Positions 7,453 to 64,000 of a stretch of 64,000 nucleotides of DNA are shown piece after piece. Position 1 is the stretch's first letter, and each line of letters opens with the position of its first letter. A program made the translations under genes and the position numbers. The notes beneath the pieces were generated by a model. That model was not told the origin of the DNA. It saw nothing but the letters and a program-made list of their open reading frames with translations, and did not search any database. Source of the stretch: Saccoglossus kowalevskii (taxonomy: Eukaryota; Hemichordata; Enteropneusta; Harrimaniidae); contig NW_003158134.1 of the NCBI RefSeq assembly GCF_000003605.2, positions 36,743-100,742 on the forward strand. Reading direction: 5' to 3'.

Positions 7453-7477
7453 TTGCATGTTGTGTTACTTGAGATAG
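7453..7477 (+). repeat. Truncated 25 bp monomer, second copy
   Basis: This is the same four-base-short monomer as at 5708-5732, exactly 1745 bp downstream, with the same ATATATTTG junction before it. Confidence 0.85.
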
Positions 7478-7604
7478 GTGCATGTTGTGTTACTCACTTG
7501 ATATAGGTGCATGTTGTGTCACTCACTTGAGTACTTACCATTGTGTCACTCACATGAGATAGGTGCATGTTGTGTTACTCACTTGAGATAGGTGCATGTT
7601 GTGT

Positions 7605-13000: not shown

Positions 13001-13169
13001 GTCACTCACTTGAGATAGGTGCATGTTGTGTCACTCACATGAGATAGGTGCATGTTGTGTCACTCACATGAGATAGGTGCATGTTGTGTCACTCACTTGA
13101 GATTGATGCATGTTGTGTCACACACTTGATATAGGTGCATGTTGTGTCACTCACTTGAGATAGGTGCAT

Positions 13170-37088: not shown

Positions 37089-37442
37089 GTTGTGTCACTC
37101 ACATGAGATAGGTGCATGTTGTGTTACTCACTTGATATAGGTGCATGTTGTGTCACCCACTTGATATAGGTGCATGTTGTGTCACTCAAATGAGATAGAT
37201 GCATGTTGTGTCACTCACTTGATATAGGTGCATGTTGTGTCACTCACATGAGATAGGTGCATGTTGTGTCACTCACATGAGATAGGTGCATGTTGTGTCA
37301 CTCACATGAGATAGGTGCATGTTGTGTTACTCACTTGATATAGGTGCATGTTGTGTCACTCACTTGAAATAGCAGCATGTTGTGTCACTCACATGAGATA
37401 GGTGCATGTTGTGTCACTCACATGAGATAGGTGCATGTTGTG
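36330..37442. repeat. Segmental copy of 39698-40810, offset 3368
   Basis: Shared markers are CTTGAGCTAG (36648 and 40016), GTACGTACC (36821 and 40189), ACTAGTGTAC (37019 and 40387) and CACTCAAATGAG (37187 and 40555). With the 5992 bp offset block this gives three related copies at 36.3, 39.7 and 42.3 kb. The 37.36 kb monomer has an odd AATAGCAGCATG. Confidence 0.85.
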
Positions 37443-38965
37443 TCACTCACATGATATAGGTGCATGTTGTGTCACTCACTTGATATAGGTGCATGTTGTG
37501 TCACTCACATGAGATAGGTGCATGTTGTGTCACTCACTTGAGATAGATGCATGTTGTGTCACACACTTGATATAGATGCATGTTGTGTCACTCACTTGAT
37601 ATAGGTGCATGTTTTGTCACTCACTTGAGATAGGTGCATGTTGTGTTACTCACTTGATATAGGTGCATGTTGTGTTACTCACTTGAGATAGGTGCATGTT
37701 GTGTCACTCACTTGAGTACTTACCATTGTGTCACTCACATGAGATAGGTGCATGTTGTGTCACTCACATGAGATAGGTACATGTTGTGTCACTCACATGA
37801 GATAGGTGCATGTTGTGTCACTCACTTGATATAGGTGCATGTTGTGTTACTCACTTGAGTACTTACCATTGTGTCACTCACATGAGATAGGTGCATGTTG
37901 TGTCACTCACTTGAGATAGGTGCATGTTGTGTCACTCACTTGAGTACTTACCATTGTGCCACTCACATGAGATAGGTGCATGTTGTGTCACTCACATGAG
38001 ATAGGTGCATGTTGTGTCACTCACATGAGATAGGTGCATGTTGTGTCACTCACTTGATATAGGTGCATGTTGTGTCACTCACTTGAGATAGGTGCATGTT
38101 GTGTCACTCACATGAGATAGGTGCATGTTGTGTCACTCACTTGAGATAGGTGCATGTTGTGTCACTCACATGAGATAGGTGCATGTTGTGTCACTCACAT
38201 GAGATAGGTAAATGTTGTGTCACTCACTTGATATAGGTGCATGTTGTGTCACTCACTTGAGATAGGTGCATGTTGTGTCACTCACATGAGATAGGTGCAT
38301 GTTGTGTCACTCACATGAGATAGGTGCATGTTGTGTCACTCACATGAGATAGGTGCATGTTGTGTCACTCACATGAGATAGATGCATGTTGTGTCACACA
38401 CTTGATATAGGTGCATGTTGTGTCACTCACTTGAGATAGGTGCATGTTGTGTCACTCACATGAGATAGGTGCATGTTGTGTCACTCACATGAGATAGGTG
38501 CATGTTGTGTCACTCACATGAGATAGGTGCATGTTGTGTCACTCACATGAGATAGGTGCATGTTGTGTCACTCACTTGAGATAGATGCATGTTGTGTCAC
38601 TCACTTGATATAGGTGTATGATGTGTCACTCACTTGAGTACTTACCATTGTGTCACTCACATGAGATAGGTGCATGTTGTGTCACTTACATGAGATAGGT
38701 GCATGTTGTGTCACTCACATGAGATAGGTGCATGTTGTGTCACTCACATGAGATCGGTGCATGTTGTGTCACTCACTTGATATAGGTGCATGTTGTGTCA
38801 CTCACTTGAGATAGGTGCATGTTATGTCACTCACATGAGATAGGTGCATGCTGTGTCACTCACTTCAGATAGGTGCATGTTGTGTCACTCACATGAGATA
38901 GGTGAATGTTGTGTCACTCACATGAGATAGGTGCATGTTGTGTCACTCACTTGATATAGAGGCAT

Positions 38966-41900: not shown

Positions 41901-44900
41901 CATTGTGTCACTCACATGAGATAGGTGCATGTTGTGTCACTCACATGAGATAGGTGCATGTTGTGTTACTCTCTTGATATAGGTGCATGTTGTGTCACTC
42001 ACTTGAGATAGGTGCATGTTGTGTCACTCACATGAGATAGGTGCATGTTGTGTCACTCACATGAGATAGGTGCATGTTGTGTTACTCACTTGATATAGGT
42101 GCATGTTGTGTCACTCACTTGAGATAGGTGCATGTTGTGTCACTCACATGTGATAGGTGCATGTTGTGTCACTCACATGAGATAGGTGCATGTTGTGTCA
42201 CTCACATGAGATAGGTGCATGTTGTGTCACTCACTTGATATAGGTGCATGTTGTGTCACTCACTAGAGTACTTACCATTGTGTCACTCACATGAGATAGG
42301 TGCATGTTGTGTCACTCACTTGATATAGGTGCATGTTGTGTCACTCACTTGAGTACTTACCATTGTGTCACTCACATGAGATAGGTGCATGTTGTGTCAC
42401 TCACATGAGATAGGTGCATGTTGTGTCACTCACTTGATATAGGTGCATGTTGTGTCACTCACTTGATATAGGTGCATGTTGTGTCACTCACTTGATATAG
42501 GTGCATGTTGTGTTACTCACTTGAGATAGGTGCATGTTGTGTTACTCACTTGATATAGGTGCATGTTGTGTCACTCACTTGAGTACTTACCAGTGTGTCA
42601 CTCACATGAGATAGGTGCATGTTGTGTTACTCACTTGAGCTAGGTGCATGTTGTGTTACTCACTTGATATAGGTGCATGTTGTGTTACTCACTTGATATA
42701 GGTGCATGTTGTGTTACTCACTTGAGATAGGTGCATGTTGTGTTACTCACTTGATATAGGTGCATGTTGTGTTACTCACTTGAGATAGGTGCATGTTGTG
42801 TCACTCACTTGAGTACGTACCATTGTGTCACTCACATGAGATAGGTGCATGTTGTGTCACTCACATGAGATAGGTGCATGTTGTGTCACTCACTTGATAT
42901 AGGTGCATGTTGTGTTACTCACATGAGATAGGTGCATGTTGTGTCACTCACATGAGATAGGTGCATGTTGTGTCACTCACTTGATATAGGTGCATGTTGT
43001 GTCACTCACTAGTGTACTTACCATTGTGTCACTCACATGAGATAGGTGCATGTTGTGTCACTCACATGAGATAGGTGCATGTTGTGTTACTCACTTGATA
43101 TAGGTGCATGTTGTGTCACTCACTTGAGATAGGTGCATGTTGTGTCACTCACATGAGATAGGTGCATGTTGTGTCACTCACATGAGATAGGTGCATGTTG
43201 TGTCACTCACATGAGATAGGTGCATGTTGTGTCACTCACTTGATATAGGTGCATGTTGTGTCACTCACTTGAGATAGGTGCATGTTATGTCACTCACATG
43301 AGATAGGTGCATATTGTGTCACTCACATGAGATAGGTGCATGTTGTGTCACTCACATGAGATAGGTGCATGTTGTGTCACTCACATGAGATAGGTGCATG
43401 TTGTGTCACTCACTTGATATAGGTGCATGTTGTGTCACTCACTTGAGATAGGTGCATGTTGTGTCACTGACATGAGATAGGTGCATGTTGTGTCACTCAC
43501 ATGAGATAGGTGCATGTTGTGTCACTCACATGAGATAGGTGCATGTTGTGTCACTCACTTCAGATAGGTGCATGTTGTGTCACTCACATGAGATAGGTGC
43601 ATGTTGTGTCACTCACATGAGATAGGTGCATGTTGTGTCACTCACTTGATATAGGTGCATGTTGTGTCATTCACTTGAGATAGGTGCATGTTGTGTCACT
43701 CACATGAGATAGGTGCATGTTGTGTCACTCACATGAGATAGGTGCATGTTGTGTCACTCACATGAGATAGGTGCATGTTGTGTCACTCACTTGAGATAGA
43801 TTCATGTTGTGTCACACACTTGATATAGGTGCATGTTGTGTCACTCACTTGAGATAGGTGCATGTTGTGTCACTCACATGAGATAGGTGCATGTTGTGTC
43901 ACTCACATGAGATAGGTGCATGTTGTGTCACTCACATGAGATAGGTGCATGTTGTGTCACTCACTTGAGATAGATGCATGTTGTGTCACACACTTGATAT
44001 AGATGCATGTTGTGTCACTCACTTGATATAGGTGCATGTTGTGTCACTCACTTGAGATAGGTGCATGTTGTATTACTCACTTGATATAGGTGCATGTTGT
44101 GTCACCCACTTGATATAGGTGCATGTTGTGTCACTCACATGAGATAGGTGCATGTTGTATTACTCACTTGATATAGGTGCATGTTGTGTCACCCACTTGA
44201 TATAGGTGCATGTTGTGTCACTCACATGAGATAGATGCATGATGTGTCACTCACTTGATATAGGTGCATGTTGTGTCACTCACATGAGATAGGTGCATGT
44301 TGTGTCACTCACATGAGATAGGTGCATGTTGTGTCACTCACATGAGATAGGTGCATGTTGTGTTACTCACTTGATATAGGTGCATGTTGTGTCACTCACT
44401 TGAGATAGGTGCATGTTGTGTCACTCACATGAGATAGGTGCATGTTGTGTCACTCACATGAGATAGGTGCATGTTGTGTTACTCACTTGATATAGGTGTA
44501 TGTTGTGTCACTCACTTGAGATAGGTGCATGCTGTGTCACTCACATGAGATAGGTGCATGTTGTGTCACTCACTTGAGATAGGTGCATGTTGTGTTACTC
44601 ACTAGATATAGGTGCATGTTGTGTTACTCGCTTGATATAGGTGCATGTTGTGTTACTCACTTGATATAGGTGCATGTTGTGTTACTCACTTGAGATAGGT
44701 GCATGTTGTGTTACTCACTTGATATAGGTGCATGTTTGTGTTACTTCACATGAGATAGGTGCATGTGTGTCACTCACTTGAGTACTTACCATTGTGTCAC
44801 TCACTTGAGATAGATGCATGTTGTGTCACTCACTTGATATAGGTGCATGTTTTGTCACTCACTAGAGTACTTACCATTCTGTCACTCACATGAGATAGGT

Positions 44901-45850
44901 GCATGTTGTGTCACTCACATGAGATAGGTGCATGTTGTGTCACTCACATGAGATAGGTGCATGTTGTATTACTCACTTGATATAGGTGCATGTTGTGTCA
45001 CCCACTTGATATATGTGCATGTTGTGTCACTCACATGAGATAGATGTATGATGTGTCACTCACTTGATATAGGTGCATGTTGTGTCACTCACATGAGATA
45101 GGTGCATGTTGTGTCACTCACATGAGATAGGTGCATGTTGTGTCACTCACATGAGATAGGTGCATGTTGTGTTACTCACTTGATATAGGTGCATGTTGTG
45201 TCACTCACTTGAGATAGGTGCATGTTGTGTCACTCACATGAGATAGGTGCATGTTGTGTCACTCACATGAGATAGGTGCATGTTGTGTTACTCACTTGAT
45301 ATAGGTGCATGTTGTGTCACTCACTTGAGATAGGTGCATGTTGTGTCACTCACATGAGATAGGTGCATGTTGTGTCACTCACTTGAGATAGGTGCATGTT
45401 GTGTTACTCACTTGATATAGATGCATGATGTGTCACTCACTTGATATAGGTGCATGTTGTGTCACTCACATGAGATAGGTGCATGTTGTGTCACTCACAT
45501 GAGATAGGTGCATGTTGTGTCACTCACATGAGATAGGTGCATGTTGTGTTACTCACTTGATATAGGTGCATGTTGTGTCACTCACTTGAGATAGGTGCAT
45601 GTTGTGTCACTCACATGAGATAGGTGCATGTTGTGTCACTCACATGAGATAGGTGCATGTTGTGTTACTCACTTGATATAGGTGCATGTTGTGTCACTCA
45701 CTTGAGATAGGTGCATGTTGTGTCACTCACATGAGATAGGTGCATGTTGTATTACTCACTTGATATAGGTGCATGTTGTGTCACTCACTTGAGATAGGTG
45801 CATGTTGTGTTACTCACTTGAGATAGGTGCATGTTGTGTCACTCACTTGA
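38966..45850. repeat. Mosaic of segmental copies, B-poor in its second half
   Basis: 38.97-43.09 kb is a patchwork of the blocks described at 15.9, 24.6, 30.1, 35.4 and 36.3 kb. From about 43.02 to 44.78 kb there is no B unit, the longest such run I noticed. The 43.2-43.83 kb part repeats the CACTGACATG and TAGATTCATG block. ACCATTCTGTC at 44874 links to 17.42 and 49.97 kb. Nothing other than satellite is present. Confidence 0.8.
44728..44790. repeat. Cluster of irregular-length monomers
   Basis: Consecutive monomers carry small indels: CATGTTTGTGTTAC (extra T), TTACTTCACATG (extra T) and GCATGTGTGTCACTC (missing T). Such clusters are rare elsewhere, and may be mutations near a rearrangement junction or consensus errors in the assembly. 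Confidence 0.7.
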
Positions 45851-48800
45851 GTACTTACCATTGTGTCACTCACATGAGATAGGTGCATGTTGTGTTACTC
45901 ACTTGAGATAGGTGCATGTTGTGTTACTCACTTGATATAGGTGCATGTTGTGTTACTCACTTGATATAGGTGCATGTTGTGTTACTCACTTGATATAGGT
46001 GCATGTTGTGTTACTCACTTGAGATAGGTGCATGTTGTGTTACTCACTTGATATAGGTGCATGTTGTGTTACTCACTTGAGATAGGTTCATGTTGTGTCA
46101 CTCACTTGAGTACTTACCATTGTGTCACTCACATGAGATAGGTGCATGTTGTGTCACTCACATGAGATAGGTGCATGTTGTGTCACTCACTTGATATAGG
46201 TGCATGTTGTGTTACTCACTTGAGTACTTACCATTGTGTCACTCACATGAGATAGGTGCATGTTGTGTCACTCACTTGAGATAGGTGCATGTTGTGTCAC
46301 TCACTTGAGTACTTACCATTGTGCCACTCACATGAGATAGGTGCATGTTGTGTCACTCACATGAGATAGGTGCATGTTGTGTCACTCACATGAGATAGGT
46401 GCATGTTGTGTCACTCACTTGATATAGGTGCATGTTGTGTCACTCACTAGAGTACTTACCATTGTGTCACTCACATGAGATAGGTGCATGTTGTGTCACT
46501 CACTTGAGATAGGTGCATGTTGTGTCACTCACTTGAGATAGGTGCATGTTGTGTCACTCACTTGAGTACTTACCATTGTGTCACTCACATGAGATAGGTG
46601 CATGTTGTGTCACTCACATGAGATAGGTGCATGTTGTGTCACTCACATGAGATAGGTGCATGTTGTGTCACTCACATGAGATAGGTACATGTTGTGTCAC
46701 TCACTTGAGATAGATGCATGTTGTGTCACTCACTTGATATAGGTGCATGTTGTGTCACTCACTAGAGTACTTACCATTGTGTCACTCACATGAGATAGGT
46801 GCATGTTGTGTCACTCACATGAGATAGGTGCATGTTGTGTCACTCACATGAGATAGGTGCATGTTGTATTACTCACTTGATATAGGTGCATGTTGTGTCA
46901 CCCACTTGATATAGGTGCATGTTGTGTCACTCACATGAGATAGATGCATGATGTGTCACTCACTTGATATAGGTGCATGTTGTGTCACTCACATGAGATA
47001 GGTGCATGTTGTGTCACTCACATGAGATAGGTGCATGTTGTGTTACTCACTTGATATAGCTGCGTGTTGTGTCACTCACTTGAGATAGGTGCATGTTGTG
47101 TCACTCACATGAGATAGGTGCATGTTGTGTCACTCACATGAGATAGGTGCATGTTGTGTTACTCACTTGATATAGGTGCATGTTGTGTCACTCACTTGAG
47201 ATAGGTGCATGTTGTGTCACTCACATGAGATAGGTGCATGTTGTGTCACTCACTTGAGATAGGTGCATGTTGTGTTACTCACTTGATATAGGTGCATGTT
47301 GTGTTACTCACTTGATATAGGTGCATGTTGTGTTACTCACTTGATATAGGTGCATGTTGTGTTACTCACTTGAGATAGGTGCATGTTGTGTTACTCACTT
47401 GATATAGGTGCATGTTGTGTTACTCACTTGAGATAGGTGCATGTTGTGTCACTCACTTGAGTACTTACCATTGTGTCACTCACATGAGATAGGTGCATGT
47501 TGTGTTACTCACTTGAGATAGGTGCATGTTGTGTTACTCACTTGATATAGGTGCATGTTGTGTTACTCACTTGATATAGGTGCATGTTGTGTTACTCACT
47601 TGATATAGGTGCATGTTGTGTTACTCACTTGAGATAGGTGCATGTTGTGTTACTCACTTGATATAGGTGCATGTTGTGTTACTCACTTGAGATAGGTTCA
47701 TGTTGTGTCACTCACTTGAGTACTTACCATTGTGTCACTCACATGAGATAGGTGCATGTTGTGTCACTCACATGAGATAGGTGCATGTTGTGTCACTCAC
47801 TTGATATAGGTGCATGTTGTGTTACTCACTTGAGTACTTACCATTGTGTCACTCACATGAGATAGGTGCATGTTGTGTCACTCACTTGAGATAGGTGCAT
47901 GTTGTGTCACTCACTTGAGTACTTACCATTGTGCCACTCACATGAGATAGGTGCATGTTGTGTCACTCACATGAGATAGGTGCATGTTGTGTCACTCACA
48001 TGAGATAGGTGCATGTTGTGTCACTCACTTGATATAGGTGCATGTTGTGTCACTCACTAGAGTACTTACCATTGTGTCACTCACATGAGATAGGTGCATG
48101 TTGTGTCACTCACTTGAGATAGGTGCATGTTGTGTCACTCACTTGAGTACTTACCATTGTGTCACTCACATGAGATAGGTGCATGTTGTGTCACTCACAT
48201 GAGATAGGTGCATGTTGTGTCACTCACATGAGATAGGTGCATGTTGTGTCACTCACATGAGATAGGTACATGTTGTGTCACTCACTTGAGATAGATGCAT
48301 GTTGTGTCACTCACTTGATATAGGTGCATGTTGTGTCACTCACTAGAGTACTTACCATTGTGTCACTCACATGAGATAGGTGCATGTTGTGTCACTCACA
48401 TGAGATAGGTGCATGTTGTGTCACTCACATGAGATAGGTGCATGTTGTATTACTCACTTGATATAGGTGCATGTTGTGTCACCCACTTGATATAGGTGCA
48501 TGTTGTGTCACTCACATGAGATAGATGCATGATGTGTCACTCACTTGATATAGGTGCATGTTGTGTCACTCACATGAGATAGGTGCATGTTGTGTCACTC
48601 ACATGAGATAGGTGCATGTTGTGTTACTCACTTGATATAGCTGCGTGTTGTGTCACTCACTGAGATAGGTGCATGTTGTGTCACTCACATGAGATAGGTG
48701 CATGTTGTGTCACTCACATGAGATAGGTGCATGTTGTGTTACTCACTTGATATAGGTGCATGTTGTGTCACTCACTTGAGATAGGTGCATGTTGTGTCAC

Positions 48801-49040
48801 TCACATGAGATAGGTGCATGTTGTGTCACTCACTTGAGATAGGTGCATGTTGTGTTACTCACTTGATATAGGTGCATGTTGTGTTACTCACTTGATATAG
48901 GTGCATGTTGTGTTACTCACTTGATATAGGTGCATGTTGTGTTACTCACTTGAGATAGGTGCATGTTGTGTTACTCACTTGATATAGGTGCATGTTGTGT
49001 TACTCACTTGAGATAGGTGCATGTTGTGTCACTCACTTGA
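45851..49040. repeat. Two tandem copies of a 1610 bp higher-order repeat
   Basis: Copy 1 is 45851-47460 and copy 2 is 47461-49040. Markers separated by 1610 bp are GATAGGTTCATG (46081 and 47691) and ATTGTGCCACTC (46321 and 47931). Later markers, GTACATG (46685 and 48266) and GATATAGCTGCGTG (47060 and 48641), are 1581 bp apart because copy 2 lacks one 29 bp monomer; it also lacks one T near 48660. Copy 1 resolves as 49 monomers of 29 bp and seven of 27 bp, matching the seven B units I see. Part recurs at 54.4-55.15 kb, offset 8072 from copy 1. This is the clearest directly adjacent HOR pair in the window. Confidence 0.88.
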
Positions 49041-52000
49041 GTACTTACCATTGTGTCACTCACATGAGATAGGTGCATGTTGTGTCACTCACATGAGATA
49101 GGTGCATGTTGTGTCACTCACATGAGATAGGTGCATGTTGTGTCACTCACTTGATATAGGTGCATGTTGTGTTACTCACTTGAGTACTTACCATTGTGTC
49201 ACTCACATGAGATAGGTGCATGTTGTGTCACTCACATGAGATAGGTGCATGTTGTATTACTCACTTGATATAGGTGCATGTTGTGTCACCCACTTGATAT
49301 AGGTGCATGTTGTGTCACTCACATGAGATAGATGCATGATGTGTCACTCACTTGATATAGGTGCATGTTGTGTCACTCACATGAGATAGGTGCATGTTGT
49401 GTCACTCACATGAGATAGGTGCATGTTGTGTCACTCACATGAGATAGGTGCATGTTGTGTTACTCACTTGATATAGGTGCATGTTGTGTCACTCACTTGA
49501 GATAGGTGCATGTTGTGTCACTCACATGAGATAGGTGCATGTTGTGTCACTCACATGAGATAGGTGCATGTTGTGTTACTCACTTGATATAGGTGCATGT
49601 TGTGTCACTCACTTGAGATAGGTGCATGTTGTGTCACTCACATGAGATAGGTGCATGTTGTGTCACTCACTTGGGATAGGTGCATGTTGTGTTACTCACT
49701 TGATATAGGTGCATGTTGTGTTACTCACTTGATATAGGTGCATGTTGTGTTACTCACTTGATATAGGTGCATGTTGTGTTACTCACTTGAGATAGGTGCA
49801 TGTTGTGTTACTCACTTGATATAGGTGCATGTTGTGTTACTCACTTGAGATAGGTGCATGTTGTGTCACTCACTTGAGTACTTACCATTGTGTCACTCAC
49901 TTGAGATAGATGCATGTTGTGTCACTCACTTGATATAGGTGCATGTTGTGTCACTCACTAGAGTACTTACCATTCTGTCACTCACATGAGATAGGTGCAT
50001 GTTGTGTCACTCACATGAGATAGGTGCATGTTGTGTCACTCACATGAGATAGGTGCATGTTGTATTACTCACTTGATATAGGTGCATGTTGTGTCACCCA
50101 CTTGATATAGGTGCATGTTGTGTCACTCACATGAGATAGATGCATGATGTGTCACTCACTTGATATAGGTGCATGTTGTGTCACTCACATGAGATAGGTG
50201 CATGTTGTGTCACTCACATGAGATAGGTGCATGTTGTGTCACTCACATGAGATAGGTGCATGTTGTGTTACTCACTTGATATAGGTGCATGTTGTGTTAC
50301 TCACTTGATATAGGTGCATGTTGTGTTACTCACTTGAGATAGGTGCATGTTGTGTTACTCACTTGATATAGGTGCATGTTGTGTTACTCACTTGAGATAG
50401 GTGCATGTTGTGTCACTCACTTGAGTACTTAACATTGTGTCACTCACATGAGATAGGTGCATGTTGTGTCACTCACATGAGATAGGTGCATGTTGTGTCA
50501 CTCACATGAGATAGGTGCATGTTGTGTCACTCACTTGATATAGGTGCATGTTGTGTTACTCACTTGAGTACTTACCATTGTGTCACTCACATGAGATAGG
50601 TGCGTGTTGTGTCACTCACTTGAGATAGGTGCATGTTGTGTCACTCACTTGAGTACTTACCATTGTGCCACTCACATGAGATAGGTGCATGTTGTGTCAC
50701 TCACATGAGATAGGTGCATGTTGTGTCACTCACATGAGATAGGTGCATGTTGTGTCACTCACTTGATATAGTGCATGTTGTGTCACTCACTAGAGTACTT
50801 ACCATTGTGTCACTCACATGAGATAGTGCATGTTGTGTCACTCACTTGAGATAGGTGCATGTTGTGTCACTCACTTGAGATAGGTGCATGTTGTGTCACT
50901 CACTTGAGTACTTACCATTGTGTCACTCACATGAGATAGGTGCATGTTGTGTTACTCACTTGAGATAGGTGCATGTTGTGTTACTCACTTGATATAGGTG
51001 CATGTTGTGTTACTCACTTGATATAGGTGCATGTTGTGTTACTCACTTGATATAGGTGCATGTTGTGTTACTCACTTGAGATAGGTGCATGTTGTGATAC
51101 TCACTTGATATAGGTGCATGTTGTGTTACTCACTTGAGATAGGTTCATGTTGTGTCACTCACTTGAGTACTTACCATTGTGTCACTCACATGAGATAGGT
51201 GCATGTTGTGTCACTCACATGAGATAGGTGCATGTTGTGTCACTCACTTGATATAGGTGCATGTTGTGTTACTCACTTGAGTACTTACCATTGTGTCACT
51301 CACATGAGATAGGTGCATGTTGTGTCACTCACTTGAGATAGGTGCATGTTGTGTCACTCACTTGAGTACTTACCATTGTGCCACTCACATGAGATAGGTG
51401 CATGTTGTGTCACTCACATGAGATAGGTGCATGTTGTGTCACTCACATGAGATAGGTGCATGTTGTGTCACTCACTTGATATAGGTGCATGTTGTGTCAC
51501 TCACTAGAGTACTTACCATTGTGTCACTCACATGAGATAGGTGCATGTTGTGTCACTCACTTGAGATAGGTGCATGTTGTGTCACTCACTTGAGATAGGT
51601 GCATGTTGTGTCACTCACTTGAGTACTTACCATTGTGTCACTCACATGAGATAGGTGCATGTTGTGTCACTCACATGAGATAGGTGCATGTTGTGTCACT
51701 CACATGAGATAGGTGCATGTTGTGTCACTCACTTGATATAGGTGCATGTTGTGTTACTCACTTGAGTACTTACCATTGTGTCACTCACATGAGATAGGTG
51801 CATGTTGTGTCACTCACATGAGATAGGTGCATGTTGTATTACTCACTTGATATAGGTGCATGTTGTGTCACTCACTTGAGATAGGTGCATGTTGTGTTAC
51901 TCACTTGAGATAGGTGCATGTTGTGTCACTCACTTGAGTACTTACCATTGTGTCACTCACATGAGATAGGTGCATGTTGTGTTACTCACTTGAGATAGGT

Positions 52001-55000
52001 GCATGTTGTGTTACTCACTTGATATAGGTGCATGTTGTGTTACTCACTTGATATAGGTGCATGTTGTGTTACTCACTTGATATAGGTGCATGTTGTGTTA
52101 CTCACTTGAGATAGGTGCATGTTGTGTTACTCACTTGATATAGGTGCATGTTGTGTTACTCACTTGAGATAGGTGCATGTTGTGTCACTCACTTGAGTAC
52201 TTACCATTGTGTCACTCACATGAGATAGGTGCATGTTGTGTTACTCACTTGAGATAGGTGCATGTTGTGTTACTCACTTGATATAGGTGCATGTTGTGTT
52301 ACTCACTTGATATAGGTGCATGTTGTGTTACTCACTTGATATAGGTGCATGTTGTGTTACTCACTTGAGATAGGTGCATGTTGTGTTACTCACTTGATAT
52401 AGGTGCATGTTGTGTTACTCACTTGAGATAGGTTCATGTTGTGTCACTCACTTGAGTACTTACCATTGTGTCACTCACATGAGATAGGTGCATGTTGTGT
52501 CACTCACATGAGATAGGTGCATGTTGTGTCACTCACTTGATATAGGTGCATGTTGTGTTACTCACTTGAGTACTTACCATTGTGTCACTCACATGAGATA
52601 GGTGCATGTTGTGTCACTCACTTGAGATAGGTGCATGTTGTGTCACTCACTTGAGTACTTACCATTGTGCCACTCACATGAGATAGGTGCATGTTGTGTC
52701 ACTCACATGAGATAGGTGCATGTTGTGTCACTCACATGAGATAGGTGCATGTTGTGTCACTCACTTGATATAGGTGCATGTTGTGTCACTCACTAAGTAC
52801 TTACCATTGGTGTCACTCACTTGAGATAGGTGCATGTTGTGTCACTCACATGAGATAGGTGCATGTTGTGTTACTCACTTGATATAGGTGCATGTTGTGT
52901 CACTCACTTGAGATAGGTGCATGTTGTGTCACTCACATGAGATAGGTGCATGTTGTGTCACTCACATGAGACAGGTGCATGTTGTGTCACTCACATGAGA
53001 TAGGTGCATGTTGTATTACTCACTTGATATAGGTGCATGTTGTGTCACCCACTTGATATAGGTGCATGTTGTGTCACTCACATGAGATAGATGCATGATG
53101 TGTCACTCACTTGATATAGGTGCATGTTGTGTCACTCACATGAGATAGGTGCATGTTGTGTCACTCACATGAGATAGGTGCATGTTGTGTCACTCACATG
53201 AGATAGGTGCATGTTGTGTTACTCACTTGATATAGGTGCATGTTGTGTCACTCACTTGAGATAGGTGCATGTTGTGTCACTCACATGAGATAGGTGCATG
53301 TTGTGTCACTCACATGAGATAGGTGCATGTTGTGTTACTCACTTGATATAGGTGCATGTTGTGTCACTCACTTGAGATAGGTGCATGTTGTGTCACTCAC
53401 ATGAGATAGGTGCATGTTGTGTCACTCACTTGAGATAGGTGCATGTTGTGTTACTCACTTGATATAGGTGCATGTTGTGTTACTCACTTGATATAGGTGC
53501 ATGTTGTGTTACTCACTTGATATAGGTGCATGTTGTGTTACTCACTTGAGATAGGTGCATGTTGTGTTACTCACTTGATATAGGTGCATGTTGTGTTACT
53601 CACTTGAGATAGGTGCATGTTGTGTCACTCACTTGAGTACTTACCATTGTGTCACTCACATGAGATAGGTGCATGTTGTGTTACTCACATGAGATAGGTG
53701 CATGTTGTGTCACTCACATGAGATAGGTGCATGTTGTGTCACTCACTTGATATAGGTGCATGTTGTGTTACTCACTTGAGTACTTACCATTGTGTCACTC
53801 ACATGAGATAGGTGCATGTTGTGTCACTCACATGAGATAGGTGCATGTTGTATTACTCACTTGATATAGGTGCATGTTGTGTCACTCACTTGAGATAGGT
53901 GCATGTTGTGTTACTCACTTGAGATAGGTGCATGTTGTGTCACTCACTTGAGTACTTACCATTGTGTCACTCACATGAGATAGGTGCATGTTGTGTTACT
54001 CACTTGATATAGGTGCATGTTGTGTTACTCACTTGATATAGGTGCATGTTGTGTTACTCACTTGATATAGGTGCATGTTGTGTTACTCACTTGAGATAGG
54101 TGCATGTTGTGTTACTCACTTGATATAGGTGCATGTTGTGTTACTCACTTGAGATAGGTTCATGTTGTGTCACTCACTTGAGTACTTACCATTGTGTCAC
54201 TCACATGAGATAGGTGCATGTTGTGTCACTCACATGAGATAGGTGCATGTTGTGTCACTCACTTGATATAGGTGCATGTTGTGTTACTCACTTGAGTACT
54301 TACCATTGTGTCACTCACATGAGATAGGTGCATGTTGTGTCACTCACTTGAGATAGGTGCATGTTGTGTCACTCACTTGAGTACTTACCATTGTGCCACT
54401 CACATGAGATAGGTGCATGTTGTGTCACTCACATGAGATAGGTGCATGTTGTGTCACTCACATGAGATAGGTGCATGTTGTGTCACTCACTTGATATAGG
54501 TGCATGTTGTGTCACTCACTAGAGTACTTACCATTGTGTCACTCACATGAGATAGGTGCATGTTGTGTCACTCACTTGAGATAGGTGCATGTTGTGTCAC
54601 TCACTTGAGATAGGTGCATGTTGTGTCACTCACTTGAGTACTTACCATTGTGTCACTCACATGAGATAGGTGCATGTTGTGTCACTCACATGAGATAGGT
54701 GCATGTTGTGTCACTCACATGAGATAGGTGCATGTTGTGTCACTCACATGAGATAGGTACATGTTGTGTCACTCACTTGAGATAGATGCATGTTGTGTCA
54801 CTCACTTGATATAGGTGCATGTTGTGTCACTCACTAGAGTACTTACCATTGTGTCACTCACATGAGATAGGTGCATGTTGTGTCACTCACATGAGATAGG
54901 TGCATGTTGTGTCACTCACATGAGATAGGTGCATGTTGTATTACTCACTTGATATAGGTGCATGTTGTGTCACCCACTTGATATAGGTGCATGTTGTGTC

Positions 55001-55850
55001 ACTCACATGAGATAGATGCATGATGTGTCACTCACTTGATATAGGTGCATGTTGTGTCACTCACATGAGATAGGTGCATGTTGTGTCACTCACATGAGAT
55101 AGGTGCATGTTGTGTTACTCACTTGATATAGCTGCGTGTTGTGTCACTCACTTGAGATAGGTGCATGTTGTGTCACTCACATGAGATAGGTGCATGTTGT
55201 GTTATTCACTTGATATAGGTGCATGTTGTGTCACCCACTTGATATAGGTGCATGTTGTGTCACTCACATGAGATAGGTGCATGTTGTGTCACTCACATGA
55301 GATAGGTGCATGTTGTGTTACTCACTTGATATAGGTGCATGTTGTGTCACTCACTTGAGATAGGTGCATGTTGTGTCACTCACATGAGATAGGTGCATGT
55401 TGTGTCACTCACATGAGATAGGTGCATGTTGTGCTACTCACTTGATATAGGTGCATGTTGTGTCACTCACTTGAGATAGGTGCATGTTGTGTCACTCACA
55501 TGAGATAGGTGCATGTTGTGTCATTCACATGAGATAGGTGCATGTTGTGTCACTCACATGAGATCGGTGCATGTTGTGTCACTCACTTGATATAGGTGCA
55601 TGTTGTGTCACTCACTTGAGATAGGTGCATGTTGTGTCACTCACATGAGATAGGTGCATGTTGTGTCACTCACTTGAGATAGGTGCATGTTGTGTCACTC
55701 ACATGAGATAGGTGCATGTTGTGTCACTCACATGAGATAGGTAAATGTTGTGTCACTCACTTGATATAGGTGCATGTTGTGTCACTCACTTGAGATAGGT
55801 GCATGTTGTGTCACTCACATGAGATAGGTGCATGTTGTGTCACTCACATG
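49041..55850. repeat. A-dominated domain with 1.3-1.7 kb repeated blocks
   Basis: The GATAGGTTCATG and ATTGTGCCACTC marker pair recurs at 51138/51378, 52427/52667 and 54153/54393, giving successive spacings of 1289 (37 monomers of 29 bp plus eight of 27 bp) and 1726 (53 plus seven). 50850-51516 matches 52139-52805. 54.4-55.15 kb repeats the 46.3-47.1 kb HOR part. Missing-base monomers (ATATAGTGCATG, GAGATAGTGCATG) lie near 50770 and 50825. No non-satellite sequence is seen. Confidence 0.8.
52785..52815. repeat. Irregular monomer junction
   Basis: A B unit reads CACTAAGTACTTACC (one G missing) followed by CCATTGGTGTCAC (one G extra). The 1289 bp offset match ends within about 10 bases of it, so this looks like a recombination or assembly join. 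Confidence 0.65.
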
Positions 55851-55854
55851 AGAT

Positions 55855-55990
55855 AGGTGCATGTTTGTGTCACTCACATGAGATAGGTGCATGTTTGTGT
55901 CACTCACTTGAGATAGATGCATGTTGTGTCACACACTTGATATAGGTGCATGTTGTGTCACTCACTTGAAGATAGGTGCATGTTGTGTCA
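55855..55990. repeat. Indel-rich approach to the divergent island
   Basis: Monomers just before the island carry single-base insertions: CATGTTTGTGTC twice (about 55862 and 55892) and CTTGAAGATAG (about 55967). The first monomer of the island is two bases short (CTCACGAGATAG). The surrounding array is otherwise regular, so the change in quality or evolution is local. Confidence 0.75.
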
Positions 55991-56048
55991 CTCACGAGAT
56001 AGAGGCGCGTGTGTCTCTCTCACGAGAGAGGGACGCATGTGTGTCTCT

Positions 56049-56054
56049 CACGTG
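56049..56054. other. CACGTG palindrome (canonical E-box sequence)
   Basis: The island monomer reads CTCACGTGATAG where ordinary monomers have CTCACATGAGATAG. CACGTG is a perfect palindrome and, by sequence only, a canonical bHLH target; I did not find it elsewhere in the array. Function is unknown. Confidence 0.6.
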
Positions 56055-56116
56055 ATAGAGGCACATGGTGTCTCTCTCACTAGAGTGGTGCACATTGTGT
56101 CACTCACTTGAGTTAG

Positions 56117-56201
56117 GTGCATGGTGTCTCTCTCATGTGATAGAGGCACATGGTGTCTCTCTCATGAGATTGGTGCACATTGTGTCACTCACATGAGTTA
56201 G
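56117..56201 (+). repeat. 85 bp trimeric HOR, copy 1
   Basis: Three monomers: X 56117-56143 (27 bp, GTGCATGGTGTCTCTC, ends ATGTGATAG), Y 56144-56172 (29 bp, GGCACATGG to GAGATTG) and Z 56173-56201 (29 bp, GTGCACATTGTGTCAC to GAGTTAG). A partial earlier Y-Z pair lies at 56059-56116. Confidence 0.87.
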
Positions 56202-56286
56202 ATGCATGTAGTCTCTCTCATGAGATATAGGCGAATAGTGTCTCTCTCATGAGATTGGTGAACATTGTGTCACTCACATGAGTTAG
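56202..56286 (+). repeat. 85 bp trimeric HOR, copy 2
   Basis: X 56202-56228 (ATGCATGTAGTCTC, ends GAGATAT), Y 56229-56257 (GGCGAATAGTG, with a CpG) and Z 56258-56286 (GTGAACATTG to GAGTTAG). It has the same order and lengths as copy 1 with several substitutions, so the copies have diverged. Confidence 0.87.
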
Positions 56287-56371
56287 GTGCATGGTGTCTC
56301 TCTCATGAGATATAGGCACATGGTGTCTCTCTCATGAGATTGGTACACATTGTGTCACTCACATGAGATAG
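56287..56371 (+). repeat. 85 bp trimeric HOR, copy 3
   Basis: X 56287-56313, Y 56314-56342, and a last monomer, 56343-56371, that begins like Z (GTACACATTG) but ends GAGATAG like an ordinary type A monomer. The return to the main array therefore happens inside this monomer. Confidence 0.87.
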
Positions 56372-59300
56372 GTGCATGTTGTTTCACTCACTTGATATAG
56401 GTGCATGTGTGTCACTCTCACTTGAGTACTAACCATTGTGTCACTCACTTGAAATAGATGCATGTTGCGTTACTCACTTGATATAGGTGCATGTTGTGTC
56501 ACTCACTTGAGTACTTACCATTGTGTCACTCACTTGAGTACTTACCATTGTGTCACTCACTTGATATAGATGCATGTTGTGTTACTCATTTGATATAGGT
56601 GCATGTTGTGTCACTCACTTGAGATAGATGCATGTTGTGTCACTCACTTGAGATAGATGCATGTTGTGTTACTCACTTGATATAGGTGCATGTTGTGTCA
56701 CTCACTAGAGTACTTACCATTATGTCACTCACATGAGATAGGTGCATGTTGTGTCACTCACTTGAGATCGGCGCATGTTGTGTTACTCACTTGATATAGG
56801 TGCATGTTGTGTCACTCACTTGATATAGGTGCATGTTGTGTCACTCACTAGAGTACTTACCATTGTGTCACTCACATGAGATATGTGCATGTTGTGTCAC
56901 TCACTTGAGATAGGTGCATGTTGTGTCACTCACTTGATATAGGTGCATGTTGTGTCACTATCATGAGATAGGTGCATGTTGTGTCACTCACATGAGATAG
57001 GTGCATGTTGTGTCACTCACTTGATATAGGTGCATGTTGTGTCACTCACTAGAGTACTTACCATTGTGTCACTCACATGAGATAGGTGCATGTTGTGTCA
57101 CTCACTTGATATAGGTGCATGTTGTGTCACTCACTTGAGTACTTACCATTGTGTCACTCACATGAGATAGATGCATGTTGTTTCACTCACTTGATATAGG
57201 TGAATGTTGTGTCACTCACTTGAGTACTTACCATTGTGTCACTCACATGAGATAGGTGCATGTTGTTTCACTCACTTGATATAGGTGCATGTTGTGTCAC
57301 TCACTTGAGTACTTACCATTGTGTCACTCACATGAGATATGTGCATGTTGTTTCACTCACATGAGATAGGTGCATGTTGTGTCACTCACTTGATATAGGT
57401 GCATGTTGTGTTACTCACTTGATATAGGTGCATGTTGTGTCACTCACTAGAGTACTTACCATTGTGTCACTCACATGAGATAGGTGCATGTTGTGTCACT
57501 CACTTGATATAGGTGCACGTTGTGTCACTCACTTGAGTACTTACCATTGTGTCACTCACATGAGATAGATGCATGTAGTTTCACTCACTTGATATAGGTG
57601 AATGTTGTGTCACTCACTTGAGTACTTACCATTGTGTCACTCACATGAGATAGGTGCATGTTGTTTCACTCACTTGATATAGGTGCATGTTGTGTCACTC
57701 ACTTGAGTACTAACCATTGTGTCACTCACATGAGATAGGTGCATGTTGTTTCACTCACTTGATATAGGTGAATGTTGTGTCACTCACTTGAGTACTTACC
57801 ATTGTGTCACTCACTTGAAATAGATGCATGTTGCGTTACTCACTTGATATAGGTGCATGTTGTGTCACTCACTTGAGTACTTACCATTGTGTCACTCACT
57901 TGAGATAGATGCATGTTGTGTTACTCATTTGATATAGGTGCATGTTGTGTCACTCACTTGAGTACTTACCATTGTGTCACTCACTTGAGATAGATGCATG
58001 TTGTGTTACTCACTTGATATAGGTGCATGTTTTGTCACTCACTTGATATAGGTGCATGTTGTTTCACTCACTTGAGATAGGTGCGTGTTGTGTCACTCAC
58101 TTGATATAGGTGCATGTTGTGTCACTCACTTGAAATAGGTGCATGTTGTGTCACTCACATGAGATAGGTGCATGTTGTGTCACTCACATGAGATAGGTGC
58201 ATGTTGTGTTACTCTCTTGATATAGGTGCATGTTGTGTCACTCACATGAGATAGGTGCATGTTGTGTCACTCACATGAGATAGGTGCATGTTGTGTCACT
58301 CACATGAGATAGGTGCATGTTGTGTTACTCACTTGATATAGGTGCATGTTGTGTCACTCACTTGAGATAGGTGCATGTTGTGTCACTCACATGAGATAGG
58401 TGCATGTTGTGTCACTCACATGAGATAGGTGCATGTTGTGTCACTCACTTGATATAGGTGCATGTTGTGTCACTCACTTGAGATAGGTGCATGTTGTGTC
58501 ACTCACATGAGATAGGTGCATATTGTGTCACTCACTTGAGATAGGTGCATGTTGTGTCACTCACATGAGATAGGTGCATGTTGTGTCACTCACATGAGAT
58601 AGGTGCATGTTGTGTCACTCACTTGATATAGGTGCATGTTGTGTCACTCACTTGAGATAGGTGCATGTTGTTTCACTCACTTGAGATAGGTGCGTGTTGT
58701 GTCACTCACTTGATATAGGTGCATGTTATGTCACTCACTTGATATAGGTGAATGTTGTGTCACTCACTTGAGTACTTACCATTGTGTCACTCACTAGAGA
58801 TAGATGCATGTTGTGTTACTCACTTGATATAGGTGCATGTTGTGTCACTCACTTGAGTACTTACCATTGTGTCACACACTTGAGATAGATGCATGTTGTG
58901 TTACTCACTTGAGATAGGTGCATGTTGTGTCACTCACTTGATATAGGTGCATGTTGTGTCACTCACTTGAGTACTTACCATTGTGTCACTCACTTGAGAT
59001 AGATGCATGTTGTGTCACTCACTTGATATAGGTGCATGTTGTGTCACTCACTAGAGTACTTACCATTGTGTCACTCACATGAGATAGGTGCATGTTGTTT
59101 CACTCACTTGATATAGATGAATGTTGTGTCACTCACTTGAGTACTTACCATTGTGTCACTCACTTGAGATAGATGCATGTTGTGTCACTCACTTGATATA
59201 GGTGCATGTTGTGTCACTCACTAGAGTACTTACCATTGTGTAACTCACATGAGATAGGTGCATGTTGTTTCACTCACTTGATATAGGTGCATGTTGTGTC

Positions 59301-60066
59301 ACTCACTTGAGTACTTACCATTGTGTCACTCACATGAGATAGATGCATGTTGTTTCACTCACTTGATATAGGTGAATGTTGTGTCACTCACTTGAGTACT
59401 TACCATTGTGTCACTCACACGAGATAGGTGCATGTTGTGTCACTCACATGAGATAGGTGCATGTTGTGTTACTCACTTGATATAGATGCATGTTGTGTCA
59501 CTCACTAGAGTACTTACCATTGTGTCACTCACATGAGATAGGTGCATGTTGTGTCACTCACTTGATATAGGTGCACGTTGTGTCGCTCACTTGAGATAGA
59601 TGCATGTTGTGTCACTCACTTGATATAGGTGCATGTTGTGTCACTCACTAGAGTACTTACCATTGTGTCACTCACATGAGATAGGTGCATGTTGTTTCAC
59701 TCACTTGATATAGGTGCATGTTGTGTCACTCACTTGAGTACTTACCATTGTGTCACTCACATGAGATAGATGCATGTAGTTTCACTCACTTGATATAGGT
59801 GAATGTTGTGTCACTCACTTGAGTACTTACCATTGTGTCACTCACATGAGATAGGTGCATGTTGTTTCACTCACTTGATATAGGTGAATGTTGTGTCACT
59901 CACTTGAGTACTTACCATTGTGTCACTCACTTGAAATAGATGCATGTTGCGTTACTCACTTGATATAGGTGCATGTTGTGTCACTCACTTGAGTACTTAC
60001 CATTGTGTCACTCACTTGAGATAGGTGCATGTTGTTTCACTCACTTGATATATGTGAATGTTGTGT
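56372..60066. repeat. B-rich domain 3, long-range copy of 21.8-24.6 kb
   Basis: CGGCGCATG (22121 and 56769) and CACTATCATGAG (22311 and 56960) lie about 34648 bp apart. Downstream the offset drops to 34475 (CACGTTG at 23041 and 57516; GAAATAGATG at 23342 and 57817) because six monomers (174 bp, about 22.76-22.93 kb) are absent here. After a switch at about 58.05 kb to the 8.4 and 34 kb type block, the copy resumes near 58.67 kb at offsets 35028 and 35113 (GTGCGTG, CACACGAG). The domain is therefore a composite of at least two sources. Confidence 0.82.
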
Positions 60067-63000
60067 CACTCACTTGAGATAGGTGCATGTTGTGTCACTC
60101 ACTTGATATATGTGCATGTTGTGTCACTCACATGAGATAGGTACATGTTGTGTCACTCACTTGATATAGGTGCATGTTGTGTCACTCACTTGATATAGGT
60201 CCATGATGTGTCACTCACTTGAGATAGGTGCATGTTGTGTCACCCACTTGAGATAGGTGCTTGTTGTGTCACTCACTTGACATAGGTGCATGTTGTGTCA
60301 CTCACTTGAGATAGGTGCATGTTGTGTCACCCACTTGAGATAGGTGAATGTTGTGTCACTCACTTGAGATAGGTGCATGTTGTGTCACCCACTTGAGATA
60401 GGTGCATGTTGTGTTACTCACTTGATATAGGTGCATGTTGTGTCACTCACTTGATACAGGTGCATGTTGTGTCACTCACTAGAGTACTTACCATTGTGTC
60501 ACTCACATGAGATAGGTGCATGTAGTTTCACTCACTTGAGATAGGTGCATGTTGTTTCACTAACTTGAGATAGGTGCATGTTGTGTCACTCACTTGATAT
60601 AGGTGCATGTTGTGTCACTCACTTGATATAGGTGCATGTTGTGTTACTTGAGATAGGTGCATGTTGTGTTACTCACTTGATATAGGTGCATGTTGTGTCA
60701 CTCACTTGAGTACTTACCATTGTGTCACTCACATGAGATAGGTGCATGTTGTGTTACTCACTTGAGATAGGTGCATGTTGTGTTACTCACTTGATATAGG
60801 TGCATGTTGTGTTACTCACTTGATATAGGTGCATGTTGTGTTACTCACTTGAGATAGGTGCATGTTGTGTTACTCACTTGATATAGGTGCATGTTGTGTT
60901 ACTCACTTGAGATAGGTGCATGTTGTGTCACTCACTTGAGTACTTACCATTGTGTCACTCACATGAGATAGGTGCATGTTGTGTCACTCACATGAGATAG
61001 GTGCATGTTGTGTCACTCACATGAGATAGGTGCATTTTGTGTCACTCACTTGATATAGGTGCATGATGTGTTACTCACTTGAGTACTTACCATTGTGTCA
61101 CTCACATGAGATAGGTGCATGTTGTGTCACTCACTTGAGATAGGTGCATGTTGTGTCACTCACTTGAGTACTTACCATTGTGTCACTCACATGAGATAGG
61201 TGCATGTTGTGTCACTCACATGAGATAGGTGGATGTTGTGTCACTCACTTGATATAGGTGCATGTTGTGTCACTCACATGATAAAGGTGCATGTTGTGTC
61301 ACTCACTTGATATATGTGCATGTTGTGTCTCTCACTAGAGTACTTACCATTGTGTCACTCACATGAGATAGGTGCATGTTGTGTCACTCACATGAAAATA
61401 GGTGCATGTTGTGTCACTCACATGAAAATAGGTGCATGTTGTGTCACTCACATGAGATAGGTGCATGTGTGTCACTCACATGAGATAGGTGCATGTTGTG
61501 TCACTCACATGAGATAGGTGCATGTTGTGTCACTCACTTGAGATAGATGCATGTTGTGTCACACACTTGATATAGATGCATGTTGTGTCACTCACTTGAT
61601 ATAGGTGCATGTTGTGTCACTCACTTGAGATAGGTACATGTTGTGTTACTCACTTGATATAGGTGCATGTTGTGTTACTCACTTGAGATAGGTGCATGTT
61701 GTGTCACTCACTTGAGTACTTACCATTGTGTCACTCACATGAGATAGGTGCATGTTGTGTTACTCACTTGAGATAGGTGCATGTTGTGTTACTCACTTGA
61801 TATAGGTGCATGTTGTGTTACTCACTTGATATAGGTGCATGTTGTGTTACTCACTTGATATAGGTGCATGTTGTGTTACTCACTTGAGATAGGTGCATGT
61901 TGTGTTACTCACTTGATATAGGTGCATGTTGTGTTACTCACTTGAGATAGGTGCATGTTGTGTCACTCACTTGAGTACTTACCATTGTGTCACTCACATG
62001 AGATAGGTGCATGTTGTGTCACTCACATGAGATAGGTGCATGTTGTGTCACTCACATGAGATAGGTGCATGTTGTGTCACTCACTTGATATAGGTGCATG
62101 TTGTGTTACTCACTTGAGTACTTACCATTGTGTCACTCACATGAGATAGGTGCATGTTGTGTCACTCACTTGAGATAGGTGCATGTTGTGTCACTCACTT
62201 GAGTACTTACCATTGTGCCACTCACATGAGATAGGTGCATGTTGTGTCACTCACATGAGATAGGTGCATGTTGTGTCACTCACATGAGATAGGTGCATGT
62301 TGTGTCACTCACTTGATATAGGTGCATGTTGTGTCACTCACTAGAGTACTTACCATTGTGTCACTCACATGAGATAGGTGCATGTTGTGTCACTCACTTG
62401 AGATAGGTGCATGTTGTGTCACTCACTTGAGATAGGTGCATGTTGTGTCACTCACTTGAGTACTTACCATTGTGTCACTCACATGAGATAGGTGCATGTT
62501 GTGTCACTCACATGAGATAGGTGCATGTTGTGTCACTCACATGAGATAGGTGCATGTTGTGTCACTCACTTGATATAGGTGCATCTTGTGTCACTCACTT
62601 GAGATAGGTGCATGTTGTGTCACTGACATGAGATAGGTGCATGTTGTGTCACTCACATGAGATAGGTGCATGTTGTGTCACTCACATGAGATAGGTGCAT
62701 GTTGTGTCACTCACTTCAGATAGGTGCATGTTGTGTCACTCACATGAGATAGGTGCATGTTGTGTCACTCACATGAGATAGGTGCATGTTGTGTCACTCA
62801 CTTGATATAGGTGCATGTTGTGTCATTCACTTGAGATAGGTGCATGTTGTGTCACTCACATGAGATAGGTGCATGTTGTGTCACTCACATGAGATAGGTG
62901 CATGTTGTGTCACTCACATGAGATAGGTGCATGTTGTGTCACTCACTTGAGATAGATTCATGTTGTGTCACACACTTGATATAGGTGCATGTTGTGTCAC

Positions 63001-64000
63001 TCACTTGAGTACTTACCATTGTGTCACTCACATGAGATAGGTGCATGTTGTGTCACTCACTTGAGTACTTACCATTGTGTCACTCACATGAGATAGGTGC
63101 ATGTTGTGTCACTCACATGAGATAGGTGCATGTTGTGTCACTCACATGAGATAGGTGCATGTTTGTGTCACTCACTGGAGATAGGTGCATGTGTGTCACT
63201 CACATGAGATAGGTGCATGTTGTGTCACTCACATGAGATAGGTGCATGTTGTGTTACTCACTTGATATAGGTGCATGTTGTGTCACTCACTTGAGATAGG
63301 TGCATGTTGTGTCACTCACATGAGATAGGTGCATGTTGTGTCACTCACTTGAGATAGGTGCATGTTGTGTTACTCACTTGATATAGGTGCATGTTGTGTT
63401 ACTCGCTTGATATAGGTGCATGTTGTGTTACTCGCTTGATATAGGTGCATGTTGTGTTACTCACTTGATATAGGTGCATGTTGTGTTACTCACTTGAGAT
63501 AGGTGCATGTTGTGTTACTCACTTGATATAGGTGCATGTTGTGTTACTCACTTGAGATAGGTGCATGTTGTGTCACTCACTTGAGTACTTACCATTGCGT
63601 CACTCACATGAGATAGGTGCATGTTGTGTCACTCACATGAGATAGGTGCATGTTGTGTCACTCACATGAGATAGGTGCATGTTGTGTCACTCACTTGATA
63701 TAGGTGCATGTTGTGTTACTCACTTGAGTACTTACCATTGTGTCACTCACATGAGATAGGTGCATGTTGTGTCACTCACATGAGATAGGTGCATGTTGTA
63801 TTACTCACTTGATATAGGTGCATGTTGTGTCACCCACTTGATATAGGTGCATGTTGTGTCACTCACATGAGATAGATGCATCATGTGTCACTCACTTGAT
63901 ATAGGTGCATGTTGTGTCACTCACATGAGATAGGTGCATGTTGTGTCACTCACATGAGATAGGTGCATGTTGTGTCACTCACATGAGATAGGTGCATGTT
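60067..64000. repeat. A-dominated terminal mosaic, truncated by window end
   Basis: 60.1-61.1 kb copies 31.65-32.65 kb. About 62.5-63.0 kb copies the 35.4 kb block (CACTGACATG at 62625, TAGATTCATG at 62953). The last 250 bases (ATGTTGTATTAC, then TCACCC, then GATGCATCATG) resemble the blocks at 0.78-0.9 kb and 25.0-25.1 kb. Odd-length monomers lie at about 61391 and 61425 (CATGAAAATAGG), 61468, 63161 (GTTTGTG) and 63191 (GCATGTGTG). The array continues past the end. Confidence 0.8.
60632..60656 (+). repeat. Truncated 25 bp monomer, fourth copy
   Basis: This is the same truncation as at 32187-32211, exactly 28445 bp downstream, with the same normal junction before it. Confidence 0.82.

What the first reader, a model, noticed from the sequence alone, without database searches (positions are those of the whole stretch)
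55976..56371. Divergent CpG-bearing island with its own 85 bp trimer inside the array
About 400 bp has seven CpGs, TCTCTCTC-type monomers and a three-monomer 27+29+29 bp repeat in just over three diverged copies, flanked by nearly CpG-free satellite. Divergence between its copies is higher than between ordinary neighbours, so it appears to have escaped homogenisation. It could be a relic of an ancestral array, a boundary element, or the edge of another array type.
Basis: partly seen in the sequence, partly recalled or inferred. Interest (0 to 1): 0.8.

Follow-up and report, generated by a model that had tools for sequence, protein, structure and literature searches.

The report
Unhomogenised relic inside a satellite array
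Inside a long, nearly uniform stretch of 29-base repeats lies a roughly 360-base patch of strongly different repeats that was found nowhere else in this genome assembly, most likely an old or divergent stretch that the copying which keeps the rest of the array uniform has left behind.

Summary
The island is real. The 64 kb window is one tandem array of a 29-bp satellite (2227 monomers). All ten monomers that are 6 or more edits from any common type lie at 55984-56350. It is the longest stretch without an exact copy of 60 bases elsewhere in the window (378 bp; next 59 bp), and 20-28 edits per 116 bp from all satellite outside it. Its 18-mer occurs four times in the 572 Mb assembly as searched, all here.

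Corrections: six of the seven CpGs sit in the first 57 bp, in a hairpin-forming core; the later 284 bp are nearly as CpG-poor as the array. An 85-bp trimer length also occurs in ordinary a-b-D units. Private changes extend right to about 56.67 kb. The right-hand block recurs on contig C1643, preceded there by ordinary monomers.

Best explanation: a divergent subfamily segment left behind by homogenisation at a junction of two blocks. That it is ancestral is not shown: X groups weakly with ordinary monomers and there is no outgroup. "Another array type" finds no support in the assembly. No function is shown.

The parts
1..64000 (+). Host array: 29-bp satellite, monomer classes a, b/B, c/C (29 bp) and D (27 bp); 2227 monomers, a mosaic of duplicated blocks
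   Evidence: Wraparound decomposition, class string, exact repeats up to 1429 bp; no ORF of 300 aa and no tRNA in the window, no Rfam match in 55000-57500
55995..56350 (+). The divergent island proper
   Evidence: 10 of 10 monomers with 6+ edits lie at 55984-56350; stretch without a 60-base exact copy 55970-56347; left flank has an exact 26-nt match elsewhere ending at 55994, right flank a 59-nt match starting at 56350; 20-28 edits per 116 bp from all satellite outside
55985..56066 (+). CpG-rich, dyad-symmetric core (monomers V, W0, Y0): 6 CpGs, CpG observed/expected about 1
   Evidence: strongest 58-nt DNA fold of the window (sampled every 3 bases), -17.6 kcal/mol at 56008-56065 versus -10.6 best outside; all seven Watson-Crick dyads of 11/14 in the window
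56011..56096 (+). [not shown]
   Evidence: 76-82% identical to c1-c3; Y0 pairs with V rather than with Y1-Y3 in the tree
56097..56181 (+). [not shown]
56182..56266 (+). [not shown]
56267..56351 (+). [not shown]
   Evidence: 95.3% identical to c1
56352..56670 (+). Right zone: ordinary-type monomers with private changes, 1-11 edits per 116 bp from the best other copy in windows starting 56352-56642, 0 from 56671 on
56409..56437 (+). 29-bp variant of the 27-bp D monomer that keeps CTCTCAC (D*)
   Evidence: 3 edits from the nearest common monomer; CACTCTCAC occurs once in the window and once more on this contig outside it
55865..55994 (+). Left edge: ordinary monomers with single-base insertions; windows starting 55787-55874 have 1-2 edits, then the island is reached
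56351..60050 (+). D-rich block on the right; 56351-57000 is 95% identical to C1643 (reversed) at 15336-15984 and 18925-19573, and 92.5% at 17329-17948; end at 60050 set by eye from the class string

Best explanation
The island is a remnant of an older or divergent subfamily of the same satellite that no longer takes part in the homogenisation of the array. Shown: the array is a mosaic of blocks copied exactly over hundreds of bases; the island, and in lesser degree a zone of about 320 bp to its right, are outside this copying; monomer spacing runs on through both edges; the island amplified its own three-monomer unit locally; it was found nowhere else in the assembly. Inferred: block duplication, unequal exchange or conversion replaced other members of this subfamily with a few modern monomers, and the island survived at a junction between two amplified blocks, being now too diverged to pair with its neighbours. 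No active function is needed.
For: The longest repeated string covering a base has median 480 bp, versus a 378-bp stretch at the island not covered by any repeat of 60 bases, next such stretch 59 bp. Nine 116-bp windows inside the island are 20-28 edits from the rest of C4718, from C1643 and from C4820, while 1435 of 1735 windows of C4718 have an exact copy. Same family: nearest ordinary stretch 79% identical over the full island. Monomer lengths 26-30 bp continue through both edges. Own trimer amplification. Found once: 4 of 4 exact copies of GTGTCTCTCTCATGAGAT in the assembly are in the island; 1917 of 1925 genome sites within 2 mismatches lie in contigs C4718, C4820 and C1643, and C4820 and C1643 hold none at 0 or 1 mismatch. 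At two dinucleotide sites ordinary monomers mostly have TG while island Y or Z monomers have CA, never seen outside at these sites in the window; CG and TA, each one step from both, are rare. So at least two changes per site separate the lineages.
Against: Age is not shown. The midpoint root does not place the island at the base, X monomers group with ordinary ones, supports are low, and Y0 does not group with Y1-Y3. CpG decay is weak evidence: genome CpG observed/expected is about 0.71 (pooled over 7 of 12 sampled stretches), and CpGs elsewhere in the array look mostly like single changes of TG or CA. The change of monomer type is sharp at both edges, which also fits an insertion. No species for rooting was available, and 5 of 12 sampled stretches of the assembly held N, so absence elsewhere covers only the letters searched.
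Confidence: 0.57

Rival explanations
1. Immigrant segment: a piece of a sister satellite array elsewhere was copied into this array by conversion or recombination at a block junction.
For: Monomer type changes sharply at both edges (identity to modern a-b-D is 0.75-0.78 for c0-c3 and 0.94 for the next unit); the right-hand block recurs on C1643 without the island; own trimer structure.
Against: No sister array found in the assembly as searched; monomer spacing continues through both edges; private changes continue for about 320 bp beyond the right edge. A source array could be unassembled or in a stretch that reads N.
Confidence: 0.23
2. A functional element: the 82-bp CpG-rich dyad core forms a hairpin or binds a protein (it holds CACGTG) and locally hinders exchange, so that the repeats around it drift.
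For: Strongest fold of the window; fold of 56010-56095 z -3.6, 0 of 200 shuffles as stable, against z +1.1 and +1.5 for two ordinary controls; W0 and Y0 fold better than almost all random mutants of the nearest ordinary monomer with as many edits (fractions 0.0003 and 0.004); CpG-rich.
Against: Only 2 of 13 island monomers show it clearly and one more marginally (Y1, 0.056); the other ten do not. Trimers c1-c3 fold little better than shuffles (z -1.4, -0.5, -1.3). Chosen after looking. CACGTG as a binding motif is recalled, and the word also occurs in both LTR copies on C1643.
Confidence: 0.1
3. Assembly artefact: a misjoin or an error-rich consensus patch.
For: Read support could not be examined; contig C4718 is satellite in all parts fetched and ends at the window's end.
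Against: Clustered errors would not make four trimer copies 76-95% alike that share the CTCTCTC changes; monomer spacing continues through both edges; nothing else found in the assembly could have been misjoined there.
Confidence: 0.1

Closest known systems
Relic and divergent alpha-satellite layers of human centromeres (expanding-centromere model; PMC9549924, passages seen)
   Same: Divergent, no longer homogenised repeats beside a homogeneous array, with a steep rise of divergence between compartments
   Different: Human relics flank the live array over a few to hundreds of kilobases; here about 0.36 kb (0.7 kb with the right zone) inside the array, and no evidence that the array is a centromere
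Relic ancestral HORs interdigitated with new HORs in human centromeres (PMC11062924, passages seen)
   Same: Other repeat forms left among newer amplified ones
   Different: There phylogenetic and comparative analysis supports ancestry; here no rooting species is available and the island is a single patch
Satellites with short dyad symmetries and diverged subunits at inversion points (Tribolium madens TmSat1 and TmSat2, PMC13081366, passages seen)
   Same: Diverged units with hairpin potential within a homogeneous array
   Different: All island monomers lie in the same orientation as the flanks; the dyad is confined to one 82-bp core and does not recur

Membership tests
29-bp satellite of this array | Monomers of 26-30 bp alignable to GTGTCACTCAC... 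| tested here: met
   All 13 island monomers align; whole island 79% to ordinary stretches
29-bp satellite of this array | Shares exact blocks with the rest of the array | tested here: not met
   No 60-base exact copy over 378 bp; 20-28 edits per 116 bp from about 148 kb of satellite
Higher-order repeat | Multi-monomer unit repeated in tandem with higher identity between units than between monomers within a unit | tested here: met
   Lag 85 identity 0.898 versus 0.702 and 0.706 at one and two monomers, 56040-56350
Older form of the array's own a-b-D 85-bp trimer | X, Y, Z match a, b, D in that order better than other ordered triples | tested here: not met
   [not shown]
Relic (ancestral) satellite layer | Monomers branch basally to the modern monomers | tested here: inconclusive
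   Short monomers, no outgroup; W/Y/Z clade 81, X with ordinary at 27-37, midpoint root beside the D types at support 24
CpG island | Sustained high CpG observed/expected over at least 200 bp (definition recalled) | tested here: not met
   0.327 over 396 bp; near 1 only over 82 bp
Centromeric satellite | Occupied by centromeric histone | not testable with these tools
   No chromatin data

The most novel reading that the evidence does not exclude
The island is the surviving seed of the satellite: a CpG-bearing, near-palindromic monomer from which a three-monomer unit arose, of which only the X-type monomer was later amplified into the modern array, so that the array still carries its founder in place (V/W0/Y0, then the X-Y-Z trimers, then modern monomers such as D*). 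Against it: similarity to the modern a-b-D unit does not rise step by step but jumps at 56352 (0.75-0.78 to 0.94), and the tree does not root on the island.
Probability: 0.1. Interest if true: 0.65.

Novelty: new member of a known kind. Interest (0 to 1): 0.36.

Why it matters
How satellite arrays stay uniform, and where other repeat forms survive, is hard to see because most of an array is uniform. A patch of a few hundred bases with measurable edges, a zone of private changes on one side, and copies of its right-hand neighbour without it, gives a concrete place to test how diverged or how placed a stretch must be to drop out of homogenisation. As a single case of a known phenomenon it is of moderate interest.

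Tried and rejected
Rejected: (1) X-Y-Z as the older homologue of the a-b-D trimer. It looked attractive (both 85 bp, GATATAGG shared by b and by Y2 and Y3, CATT ends in Z and D) but ordered-triple scoring did not support it. (2) Dyad symmetry as a property of the whole island: only W0, Y0 and marginally Y1 exceed random mutants. (3) CpG decay as proof of an ancestral state: CpG observed/expected is about 0.71 pooled over 7 of 12 sampled stretches (the 5 with N, three of them wholly N, were dropped before pooling; one of the 7, L055, is itself a satellite), and the 64 CpGs elsewhere look mostly like single changes. (4) The ends of C1643 as edges of the array: they are retrotransposon sequence. 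(5) Adjacent-monomer identity as the key statistic: lowest run outside 0.746 versus 0.734. (6) A true empty site: only the right-hand block has counterparts on C1643; their left neighbours are another ordinary block than the window's left flank, and the query began at 56351, so it does not itself locate the breakpoint.

Led nowhere: viral contigs, prokaryote genome contigs (one exact pattern), phages, sequence words in papers (0 papers), papers on a 29-bp satellite (0 papers; only those terms, open-licence papers), papers on homogenisation and relics (listings only, except the three papers named below). PMC5889037 is not held. One search timed out; searches replaced it. One search stopped part-way on a stretch of N; one search completed it. 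No whole paper was read: PMC13081366, PMC9549924 and PMC11062924 were seen as found passages.

Full report
WHAT THE WINDOW IS. The 64 kb window is wholly one tandem array. A wraparound decomposition gives 2227 monomers, 1903 of 29 bp and 282 of 27 bp. A few classes make up almost everything: a (CACATGAGATAGG), b/B (CTTGATATAGG), c/C (CTTGAGATAGG) and the 27-bp D (GTACTTACCAT); by simple words there are 824 a, 398 b, 230 B, 276 c, 78 C, 277 D, 135 unclassed and 9 island-type monomers. There is no single higher-order period; exact copies of blocks up to 1429 bp are scattered through it. There is no ORF of 300 aa in six frames and no tRNA in the window, and no Rfam match in 55000-57500. The window is bases 36743-100742 of contig C4718, 100,742 bp long, in an unnamed 572 Mb assembly of 4830 contigs. 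The rest of that contig is the same satellite. The satellite also makes up C4820 (14,989 bp) and about 32 kb of C1643 (33,676 bp). Of 1925 genome sites within two mismatches of an 18-mer that takes in both island and a monomers, 1917 are in these three contigs.

THE OBSERVATION. All ten monomers that are 6 or more edits from any monomer type seen 10 or more times lie at 55984-56350; no other monomer exceeds 4. All eight TCTCTCTC words are there. Bases 55970-56347 are the longest stretch not covered by a repeated string of 60 bases or more: 378 bp, next 59 bp, median covering repeat 480 bp. In a gapped comparison of 116-bp windows with the rest of the window, 16 of 1102 are 5 or more edits from their best copy, 12 of them contiguous at 55913-56551. 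Against C4718, C4820 and C1643 together, 15 of 1735 reach 5 edits; 9 of these start at 55943-56465 with up to 25 edits, and the other 6 reach at most 7. In those two calls an island window may match a neighbouring trimer; with the whole island masked, nine windows inside it are 20-28 edits from everything else. The trimer is real: lag-85 identity 0.898 over 56040-56350; c1-c2, c2-c3 and c1-c3 are 88.2, 90.6 and 95.3% identical, and c0 is 76-82% to them.

CORRECTIONS. The CpGs are not spread over 400 bp: six are at 55995-56051 and one at 56232. CpG observed/expected is 0.996 in 55985-56066, 0.07 in 56067-56350 and 0.025 for the window. The low value of the window reflects consensus monomers without CpG; the genome background is about 0.71, pooled over 7 of 12 sampled stretches, the 5 with N dropped. 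An 85-bp length is not private: runs of three or more units of two monomers plus D occur at 12 places in the window. Adjacent-monomer identity is lowest in the island (0.734) but ordinary runs reach 0.746. On the right, ordinary-type monomers carry private changes, 1-11 edits per 116 bp in windows starting 56352-56642 and 0 from 56671.

SURROUNDINGS. The 500 bp to the left match another place in the window at 98.8%. To the right a D-rich block begins. Its start, 56351-57000, is 95% identical to C1643 (reversed) at 15336-15984 and 18925-19573, and 92.5% at 17329-17948. Left of the first two of these lie ordinary monomers, 73-75% like the island, close to the 75-79% at which the listed ordinary stretches match it. 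Those left neighbours are a different ordinary block from the window's left flank, so this is not a full empty site; it shows that copies of the right-hand block exist without the island. C1643 has no TCTCTC in the satellite orientation. Outside the island the window and C4820 each have one D-type monomer with TCTCTC.

UNIQUENESS. The exact 18-mer GTGTCTCTCTCATGAGAT occurs 4 times in the assembly, all in the island. A 113-bp query from the core finds its own place, three overlapping places in the following trimers at 81-85%, and then ordinary satellite at 82% or less in the rows listed. A further search with a core word and one with a Y-type word did not complete. Parts of the assembly read N, so absence holds for the letters searched.

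MECHANISM. Most likely the array evolves by copying blocks of hundreds of bases, as the exact repeats within and between contigs show. Such copying replaces variants; a patch that differs by about a fifth pairs poorly and survives at a junction where neither block extends over it. Its own trimer shows that it was once amplified itself. Shown: exclusion from copying, continued spacing, local amplification, position. Inferred: that it is old, and why it survives. An immigrant from an unassembled array, a core that hinders exchange, and an assembly error remain possible at lower weight.

COMPARISON. Unhomogenised relics are known, for example relic layers beside human centromeres (PMC9549924, passages) and relic HORs among new HORs (PMC11062924, passages). 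This case differs by being small, internal and single. Searches for a described 29-bp satellite found none, but tried only those words and phrases in open-licence papers.

Noticed in passing
L049 and L046 (C1643, both contig ends); reversed contig 645-845 and 33015-33215: Two identical 201-bp LTRs bound the 32-kb satellite stretch of C1643, each with the satellite 5-mer GTCAC at the junction; a gag-like ORF lies beyond one (Pfam Retrotrans_gag E 0.00028, 21.5 bits, below the curated cut-off of 24.1). Either two recent insertions at the same target word or two sides of one insertion (circle or assembly tangle)..
   Followed up: partly
window 18200-24600 and 56351-60050: D-rich blocks (limits set by eye) hold about twice the average share of D monomers (0.26 and 0.24 per 29 bp versus 0.12 of all monomers) and more CpGs (18 in 6.4 kb, 11 in 3.7 kb) than the rest of the ordinary array.
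   Followed up: partly
L039 1045-1275 (C4718, about 36 kb upstream of the window): A second, much milder diverged stretch (5-7 edits per 116 bp) with single-base deletions in several monomers, and the only other CACTCTCAC word on the contig.
   Followed up: partly
window 5716, 7461, 32195, 60640: Identical 25-bp monomers at four places, probably markers of block copying.
   Followed up: no
L055 (C1200:1001-4000): A different satellite with 35-bp spacing; of 78 overlapping 280-nt copies the 30 shown are 89-100% like the reference; CpG observed/expected 0.15.
   Followed up: no
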